This document shows, one piece after another, positions 53,790-54,063 of a DNA stretch of 64,000 nucleotides (position 1 is the first letter of the stretch; each line of letters begins with the position of its first letter). The position numbers and the translations under genes are program-made. The notes beneath the pieces are model-generated. The model saw nothing but the letters and a program-made list of their open reading frames with translations, did no database searches and was not told the origin of the DNA. The stretch is from an uncultured Ferrovum sp. (GTDB lineage Bacteria; Pseudomonadota; Gammaproteobacteria; Burkholderiales; Ferrovaceae), in NCBI GenBank assembly GCA_903905585.1, contig CAIVHB010000128.1, positions 1 through 64,000 of the forward strand, in the 5' to 3' direction.

Positions 53790-53945
53790 ATTAGGTACCA
53801 AGCGTATAGGCAGAATTAAGGAATAATTTGATTATAACAGGAGGAATAGCTCGTCTAGGATGGCGATCAGATGACAGACTGATCTATCACATACCGGTCG
53901 GTCTATTTAGCTTGCCGGTTTGAATGCTTTCCAGTAGGGTTAGGC

Positions 53946-54025
53946 TTACGTGGGGGTCCGGGAGTGTCCCGGTGAGAGAGTCCCTTTGAACCTGATGCGG
54001 GTGATGCCGCCGGAGGGAAGCGTGA
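53946..54025 (+). ncRNA. TPP (THI-box) riboswitch in the thiC leader
   Basis: The thiamine pyrophosphate aptamer is clear: GTGAGAGA at about 53972, then CCCTTTGAACCTGATGCGGG and GATGCCGCCGGAGGGAAGCG. Helix P1 pairs 53946-53950 with 54021-54025. It lies 42 bases before the thiC start and should shut thiC off when TPP is plentiful. A possible promoter (TTGCCG 53912-53917, TAGGGT 53935-53940) lies just upstream but is weak. Confidence 0.96.
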
Positions 54026-54033
54026 TGGTTTGC

Positions 54034-54063
54034 GCTCGCCCCAAGGCTTACGCCCGGGAGAGC
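54034..54063 (+). promoter_or_regulatory. predicted Shine-Dalgarno sequestor hairpin of thiC
   Basis: GCTC (54034-54037) pairs with GAGC (54060-54063) and CCC (54039-54041) with GGG (54056-54058), hiding the thiC ribosome-binding site GGGAG (54056-54060). TTACGC in its loop (54048-54053) can instead pair with GCGTGA (54020-54025), which is also the 3' strand of riboswitch P1. The two states exclude each other. Confidence 0.55.

What the first reader, a model, noticed from the sequence alone, without database searches (positions are those of the whole stretch)
53942..54063. TPP riboswitch with two mutually exclusive pairings that would expose or hide the thiC ribosome-binding site
AGGCTTACG occurs twice, at 53942-53950 (5' strand of P1) and at 54044-54052. 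The P1 3' strand GCGTGA (54020-54025) can pair with TTACG of the first copy (aptamer closed) or with TTACGC of the second (54048-54053). The second pairing crosses and so blocks the hairpin 54034-54041/54056-54063 that covers GGGAG. The repeat thus acts as a P1 mimic: TPP-bound would be OFF, TPP-free ON. The switching pieces are read directly; the mechanism is inferred.
Basis: partly seen in the sequence, partly recalled or inferred. Interest (0 to 1): 0.55.

Follow-up and report, generated by a model that had tools for sequence, protein, structure and literature searches.

The report
Ordinary TPP riboswitch before thiC
A vitamin B1-sensing RNA switch sits in front of a vitamin B1 synthesis gene and probably works in a known way; the short repeat that drew attention is probably not the moving part, and a neighbouring hairpin that relatives can also form is the better candidate.

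Summary
The sequence facts are right: a TPP aptamer (RF00059), AGGCTTACG twice, a hairpin over the thiC Shine-Dalgarno (SD) site, and 6-bp complementarity of 54020-54025 with 54048-54053. The OFF-switch logic is plausible and resembles published thiC riboswitches. The repeat as 'P1 mimic' is not supported: a conserved promoter (53912-53940) suggests most of copy 1 is not transcribed; the pairing stays at or below 0.02 in nascent folds; none of four genus relatives keeps its 6 bp; and over 76 thiC leaders the P1 3' strand does not covary with the sequestor loop (z -1.0). It can form in 5 of 5 genus leaders, covaries in the order (z -7.4) and weakly in other orders (z -2.7), and leads nascent folds until the SD emerges. 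Against it: the sequestor wins at equilibrium, and the local hairpin alone frees the SD only partly in folds, so the ON state remains inferred. A new example of a known kind.

The parts
53912..53917 (+). -35 box (TTGCCG) of the predicted thiC promoter
   Evidence: TTGCC[G/C]-N17-TAG..T in 5 of 5 genus leaders (read; listed); TTGNNN-N16-18-TANNNT in 72 of 86 leaders against a mean of 3.4 in shuffles. The stricter scan (9 of 12 consensus matches) reports no promoter here.
53935..53940 (+). -10 box (TAGGGT); predicted +1 near 53946-53948
   Evidence: start site inferred from usual spacing, not measured
53942..54036 (+). TPP aptamer (THI element), Rfam RF00059
   Evidence: 63.7 bits, gathering score 54.3, E 3.6e-10
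53942..53950 (+). first AGGCTTACG copy; 53942-53945 probably untranscribed, 53947-53950 in the P1 5' strand
53947..53951 (+). P1 5' strand (UACGU), close to the predicted 5' end of the mRNA
   Evidence: Rfam alignment, promoter position
54019..54025 (+). A plus P1 3' strand (AGCGUGA), also the 5' arm of the local anti-P1 hairpin
54030..54036 (+). 3' arm UUGCGCU of the local anti-P1 hairpin; shares 54034-54036 with the anti-SD arm
   Evidence: probability 0.90-0.97 in nascent ensembles with exposed end 54035-54062; covarying segment; possible in 5 of 5 genus leaders
54034..54041 (+). anti-SD arm of the sequestor (GCUCGCCC)
   Evidence: pairs with 54056-54063; probability 0.92-0.94 once 54068 and beyond are present
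54044..54052 (+). second AGGCTTACG copy; inside the sequestor it forms an apical stem GGC 54045-54047 / GCC 54052-54054 with loop UUAC
   Evidence: predicted fold; G003 folds GGU/GCC at the same place
54056..54060 (+). thiC SD sequence GGGAG (3' arm of the sequestor runs to 54063)
   Evidence: 6 nt before the ATG
54067..55971 (+). thiC coding sequence from ATG 54067 (MNANPKF...)
   Evidence: ORF list gives 53950..55971 from an upstream GTG; ThiC_Rad_SAM profile match, E 3.7e-187

Best explanation
This is a TPP riboswitch that represses thiC when TPP is bound. The promoter sits directly upstream, so the mRNA starts at about the P1 5' strand. With TPP bound, P1 (53947-53951/54020-54024) stays closed, the tail from 54026 is free, and 54034-54041 pairs with 54056-54063 and hides the SD. 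Without TPP, the P1 3' strand is taken during transcription by the next bases out, forming the hairpin 54019-54025/54030-54036. That hairpin breaks P1 and uses up the first three bases of the anti-SD arm, which delays the sequestor and gives a ribosome time to load. Shown by sequence and computation: aptamer, sequestor, the possible local hairpin, its covariation in the order, and its place in the order of formation. Inferred: TPP response, start site, that the delay is long enough for ribosome loading. The AGGCTTACG repeat is probably coincidental; copy 2 is best read as the tip of the sequestor hairpin.
For: Aptamer at 63.7 bits. Nascent ensembles with the aptamer core fixed: P1 0.78 at exposed end 54026; local hairpin 0.97 at 54035, 0.91 at 54062; sequestor 0.80 at 54065, 0.92 at 54068; with P1 forced closed the sequestor is at 0.90 already at 54062; repeat pairing at most 0.02. 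The equivalent helix, picked by eye, is possible in 5 of 5 genus leaders with nascent probabilities 0.81, 0.61, 1.00, 0.67, 0.92, although arm sequences differ. Swap test over 76 thiC leaders: the P1 3' strand pairs better with its own anti-SD-adjacent segment than with others' (z -7.4, 0 of 2000 permutations; P1 itself as positive control z -10.8); with 39 distinct P1 3' strands z -5.8; with about 47 leaders under 70% tail identity z -5.2. At least 5 paired bases overlapping the sequestor arm in 39 of 76 leaders against 18.2 expected. Leaders of other orders: z -2.7, 9 of 2000. No intrinsic terminator found in 53800-54150. E. coli thiC and tbpA use an anti-P1 stem against P1 and the RBS sequestor (PMC5234074, PMC11487190; passages; section 20 of the first).
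Against: At equilibrium the sequestor wins in the full tail (-23.2 kcal/mol against -16.9 with the local hairpin forced). Forcing the local hairpin does not clearly free the SD in the folds: mean unpaired probability 0.20 (53947-54090), 0.57 (53946-54075) and 0.23 (tail), against 0.20 with P1 forced, because GGGA finds other partners; the AUG is freer (0.98, 0.82 and 0.96, against 0.68-0.70 with P1 forced in the first two folds). At exposed end 54062 the SD is only 0.33 unpaired although the local hairpin is at 0.91, since 54039-54041 can still pair. Unconstrained folds of the leader do not form P1 reliably. How much the P1 3' strand pairs downstream is not exceptional leader by leader: 14 of 86 leaders reach rank 5 of 100 or better; the window was matched by 6 of 100 shuffles, G003 by 57, G004 by 64. 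In the window alone the local helix has shuffle p 0.075, the loop helix 0.01. Of the five genus leaders only three meet the criterion (G003 4 bases, G004 3 bases and no overlap); G003 breaks one of seven pairs. With stricter thinning, 13 leaders give z -2.0 (5.6% of permutations) and about 4 give z -0.8.
Confidence: 0.68

Rival explanations
1. One reading: the second TTACGC copy (54048-54053) pairs with the P1 3' strand (54020-54025) without TPP and thereby blocks the sequestor.
For: Six contiguous pairs exist, shuffle p 0.01 in this leader; duplex energy -6.8 against -6.6 for the local segment; forced energy in the isolated tail (-16.2) is close to that of the local hairpin (-16.9); copies of the P1 side of 6 nt or more are in 12 of 86 tails against 5.6 expected.
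Against: At most 0.02 in nascent ensembles and -42.8 against -51.6 kcal/mol for the local hairpin in the leader from 53947. Not kept in G001, G002, G004, 4 bp in G003. No covariation (z -1.0 in 76, z +1.1 in 46). Loop helices of 5 bp or more are at chance, 9 of 76 against 10.6, though 6 bp or more is 7 against 3.7. Its partner leaves the polymerase later than the local arm does.
Confidence: 0.09
2. Control is mainly by transcription: the TPP-bound, untranslated leader is terminated by Rho, as described for E. coli thiC; the same hairpins serve.
For: Published for E. coli thiC (PMC5234074 passages). Neisseria thiC uses an intrinsic terminator (PMC7237195 passages). In a reporter study the predicted mode differed from the measured one in several cases, e.g. 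P. aeruginosa thiC predicted translational, found transcriptional (PMC12632268 passages).
Against: No intrinsic terminator found here; Rho use cannot be tested by sequence with these tools.
Confidence: 0.3
3. The two repeat copies pair directly with each other (AGGCUU is nearly self-complementary) and form a long-range anti-P1.
For: The fold of 53936-54080 pairs the 5' flank with the tail at copy 2.
Against: It uses bases 53937-53945, which lie upstream of the predicted start, and is absent from the free minimum-energy folds that start at 53942, 53946 and 53947. P1 5' strand against loop shows no covariation (z +1.8 and +0.1).
Confidence: 0.04

Closest known systems
E. coli thiC TPP riboswitch (PMC5234074; passages and section 20 seen)
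   Same: TPP aptamer before thiC, RBS sequestor, anti-P1 stem exclusive with P1 and the sequestor, OFF logic; without TPP the anti-P1 form is not predominant in the full-length RNA but is stabilised in a paused complex
   Different: from the passages, E. coli anti-P1 is long-range and involves C7-G16 (by my reading the P1 5' side) and the region 146-154; here the best candidate is a local hairpin of the P1 3' strand with the bases just downstream
E. coli thiM TPP riboswitch (anti-anti-SD design; recalled, one search found no paper holding all three terms)
   Same: P1 3' strand pairs alternatively with the anti-SD arm (recalled)
   Different: not compared by sequence here
E. coli tbpA (thiB) TPP riboswitch (PMC11487190; passages)
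   Same: anti-P1 stem without TPP, SD hidden with TPP
   Different: different gene; GUG start
Neisseria meningitidis thiC riboswitch (PMC7237195; passages)
   Same: TPP aptamer before thiC, in a bacterium traditionally placed in the betaproteobacteria (recalled)
   Different: intrinsic terminator and antiterminator; no terminator found here
Antisequestor/sequestor riboswitches in general (PMC2258182; passages)
   Same: ligand disrupts an antisequestor so that the sequestor hides the RBS
   Different: general scheme only

Membership tests
TPP riboswitch (RF00059) | aptamer scoring above the curated cut-off | tested here: met
   63.7 against 54.3 bits
TPP riboswitch (RF00059) | upstream of a thiamine gene | tested here: met
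   ThiC_Rad_SAM E 3.7e-187 directly downstream
TPP riboswitch (RF00059) | binds TPP | not testable with these tools
   needs in-line probing or SHAPE
Translational (antisequestor/sequestor) expression platform | SD in a hairpin when P1 is closed | tested here: met
   sequestor 0.90-0.94 with P1 forced, exposed end 54062 or later
Translational (antisequestor/sequestor) expression platform | alternative stem that shares bases with P1 and with the sequestor | tested here: met
   54019-54025/54030-54036 shares 54020-54024 with P1 and 54034-54036 with the sequestor; its segment covaries with the P1 3' strand
Translational (antisequestor/sequestor) expression platform | SD accessible without ligand | tested here: inconclusive
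   equilibrium folds keep the SD paired (0.20 unpaired); at 54062 nascent 0.33; kinetics and the ribosome are outside these folds
Translational (antisequestor/sequestor) expression platform | no intrinsic terminator | tested here: met
   0 found in 53800-54150
   0 of 4 genus relatives keep the 6 bp, one keeps 4 bp; z -1.0 and +1.1

The most novel reading that the evidence does not exclude
In this one lineage the tip of the sequestor has recently gained a P1-like copy that can pair with the P1 3' strand as a second, species-specific competitor, possibly as a pseudoknot that coexists with the sequestor and holds the OFF state when P1 opens.
Probability: 0.07. Interest if true: 0.35.

Novelty: new member of a known kind. 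Interest (0 to 1): 0.2.

Why it matters
It corrects the likely moving part of a predicted switch and shows an alignment-free swap test for alternative pairings in riboswitch platforms. Across the order's leaders examined, the P1 3' strand covaries with the segment beside the anti-SD arm (z -7.4) not much less than with its own P1 5' strand (z -10.8). That supports a shared local anti-P1 design for thiC leaders of this order and gives testable base changes. Nothing here overturns known riboswitch biology.

Tried and rejected
Rejected: the repeat as anti-P1; pairing of the two repeat copies; intrinsic terminator; P1 5' strand as partner of the loop.

Led nowhere: a search for Ferrovum with riboswitch listed one paper, on Acidithiobacillia (listing only); a search for thiM with anti-anti-SD and TPP found none. 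In the listings (14, 12, 12 and 12 papers shown; more matched) I saw no title or abstract start describing this local hairpin in thiC leaders of this order. I do not claim that it is not in print; subscription papers are not held.

Rows dropped. Order set: one search covered 300 genomes, 265 with a match, and listed only the best-scoring matches; the fetched ones come from that list. 154 loci (L001-L035, L065-L183) went to the script; 6 had no end motif, 148 were oriented, 62 had no thiC start found, 86 were kept. Of these, 76 have the SD in an upstream stem and were used. Other orders: one search covered 187 genomes, 123 with a match; 90 loci fetched, 87 oriented, 49 thiC, 46 used. A first, narrower pass oriented 125 and kept 64, without the window's genus, and was replaced.

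Full report
What is there. The window carries a TPP aptamer at 53942-54036 (RF00059, 63.7 bits, cut-off 54.3), directly before thiC (ATG 54067; ThiC_Rad_SAM profile E 3.7e-187). It is the only TPP riboswitch found in its genome at E <= 0.001. The nearest named record is a MAG titled 'uncultured Ferrovum sp.' (L036, 88% identity over the neighbouring protein); its contig has the length of G003:C153, a member of the window's genus. The kinship to Ferrovum is therefore inferred.

The observation. Both copies of AGGCTTACG, the strand GCGTGA, the two possible partners and the hairpin over GGGAG are at the stated places. Among 86 thiC leaders, exact direct repeats of 9 nt or more occur in 5 against 4.0 expected; a 9-nt copy of the P1 side in the tail occurs only in the window, 0.08 expected over the set; copies of 6 nt or more occur in 12 against 5.6. 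So a repeat as such is ordinary, this one is locally unusual, and it was chosen post hoc.

Where the RNA starts. All five genus leaders carry TTGCC[G/C]-N17-TAG..T just before the aptamer (read; positions). Over the 86 leaders, TTGNNN-N16-18-TANNNT is found in the 58 nt upstream of 72, against a mean of 3.4 (largest 8) in mononucleotide shuffles; in 53 of the 72 the -10 box ends 1-5 nt before the first Rfam position. In leaders of other orders it is 29 of 49 against 2.1. The window's own match is TTGCCG 53912 to TAGGGT 53940. A stricter consensus scan reports no promoter. With usual spacing the transcript starts near 53946-53948, so AGGC of copy 1 would be promoter DNA, and the fold, which begins at 53936, uses bases that are not in the RNA.

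Folding. In the isolated tail the sequestor has -23.2 kcal/mol, the local hairpin forced -16.9 and the repeat pairing forced -16.2. In the leader from 53947 to 54090 the values are -53.9, -51.6 and -42.8. With the aptamer core fixed and the exposed end moved in steps of 3 nt, P1 leads at 54026 (0.78), the local hairpin 54019-54025/54030-54036 takes over at 54035 (0.97) and holds to 54062 (0.91; lowest 0.90), and the sequestor follows at 54065 (0.80) and 54068 (0.92); the repeat pairing never passes 0.02. With P1 forced closed, as TPP would do, the sequestor is at 0.90 at 54062. These are equilibrium ensembles at each length, not kinetic simulations, and pseudoknots are not modelled.

A weakness of the ON state. 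With the local hairpin forced the SD is unpaired at 0.20 (53947-54090), 0.57 (53946-54075) or 0.23 (tail alone), against 0.20 with P1 forced in the first two folds. At 54062 in the free nascent ensemble it is 0.33, since three C-G pairs of the sequestor do not clash with the local hairpin. The model therefore rests on a delay in sequestor formation, and on the freer AUG, rather than on a clearly open SD in these folds.

What copy 2 does in the predicted structure. 54045-54047 pairs with 54052-54054 as the tip of the sequestor (GGC, loop UUAC, GCC). G003 has GGU/GCC there with another loop. What is shared with G003 is thus the tip stem, not the P1-complementary UUACG.

Relatives. In G003 the corresponding segment is TGATGC, which gives a 4-bp helix with GCGTGG; in G001, G002 and G004 the longest loop helices are 2-3 bp. 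By contrast a helix between the P1 3' strand and the start of the anti-SD arm is available in all five with different sequences. For window, G003, G002, G004 and G001 these are AGCGUGA/UUGCGCU, AGCGUGG/CAGCGCU (6 of 7 pairs), GCGUGC/GCGCGC, AAGCGUGG/CCGUGCUU and AACGCC/GGUGUU, with nascent probabilities 0.81, 0.61, 1.00, 0.67 and 0.92. I picked these arms by eye before scoring them; the unsupervised criterion is met by three of the five (G003 has 4 paired bases, G004 3 and no overlap). Between the window and G003 the loop-closing pair changes from A-U to G-C on both sides, while the next pair breaks.

Alignment-free covariation. For each leader the anti-SD arm was located by folding the tail without the P1 3' strand; then the P1 3' strand was paired with its own or another leader's segment. 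Over 76 leaders: segment beside the anti-SD arm z -7.4 (0 of 2000), sequestor loop z -1.0 (312 of 2000), P1 5' strand as positive control z -10.8 (0 of 2000), P1 5' strand with the anti-SD-adjacent segment z -3.0 (7 of 2000), with the loop z +1.8. With 39 distinct P1 3' strands: -5.8 (segment), -1.1 (loop), -8.4 (control). Thinned by tail identity: under 0.7, about 47 leaders, -5.2 and -1.2; under 0.6, about 13, -2.0 and -0.7; under 0.5, about 4, -0.8 and -0.4. In 46 leaders of other orders, same settings: -2.7 (9 of 2000), loop +1.1, control -7.0. Within the genus alone the matched mean is -7.1 against -5.6 unmatched for the segment, and -3.2 against -3.6 for the loop; the window's own values are -6.6 and -6.8. 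A separate count gives 39 of 76 leaders with at least 5 paired bases, 2 or more of them overlapping the sequestor arm, against 18.2 expected. Gapless helices of 6 bp or more lie in the arm region in 18 against 8.8 and in the loop in 7 against 3.7; of 5 bp or more, 30 against 19.5 and 9 against 10.6. In the window alone the loop helix is the rarer one (p 0.01 against 0.075).

Further results against this reading. The amount of downstream pairing of the P1 3' strand is not striking (mean 0.77 against 0.65 in shuffles; 14 of 86 leaders at rank 5 of 100 or better; the window matched by 6 of 100, G003 by 57, G004 by 64). The sequestor wins at equilibrium. A similar situation is described for E. coli thiC, where without TPP the anti-P1 form is not predominant in the full-length RNA but is stabilised in a paused complex (PMC5234074, passages). 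Predicted and measured modes of TPP riboswitches can differ (PMC12632268, passages).

Comparison. PMC5234074 (passages and section 20) reports an alignment of 77 gammaproteobacterial thiC leaders with an anti-P1 stem exclusive with P1 and the sequestor, and 127 further sequences with that stem. The window's switch works like that; its best anti-P1 candidate differs in using the P1 3' strand in a local hairpin, as I recall for E. coli thiM. It is a member of the TPP riboswitch family by the Rfam test; TPP binding was not testable.

Verdict. Observation confirmed; mechanism partly right, with the moving part probably misassigned. It is an ordinary member of a known kind, interest 0.2.

Noticed in passing
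L045-L049, L051-L055, L057, L058, L061 (thiC loci of other genera of the family): Only the window's genus has the TPP riboswitch: 5 of 5 genomes, against 0 of 21 genomes in seven other genera, although 20 of those 21 have a ThiC match. A permissive Rfam scan of 13 such thiC loci found no TPP remnant at E <= 5. Leaders were read in 12 of the 13; in four (L047, L048, L049, L054) thiC still stands beside what looks by eye like the same divergent neighbour as in the window but with a short leader, which suggests a clean loss of the switch.
   Followed up: partly
thiC leaders of the order, e.g. L068, L120, L142, L155, L160: Many leaders share GCTCCTT(A/G)CG or close variants after the first hairpin, also where the P1 3' strand begins AGCA and TTACGC is not complementary to it. 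It may be an anti-SD plus a polymerase pause signal; not tested.
   Followed up: no
window 63008-63191 (+): 6S RNA (RF00013), 74.1 bits.
   Followed up: no
window 53950-55971 (+): The mechanical ORF for thiC begins with a GTG inside the aptamer; the real start is very likely the ATG at 54067, which has an SD and the MNANPKF start shared with relatives.
   Followed up: yes
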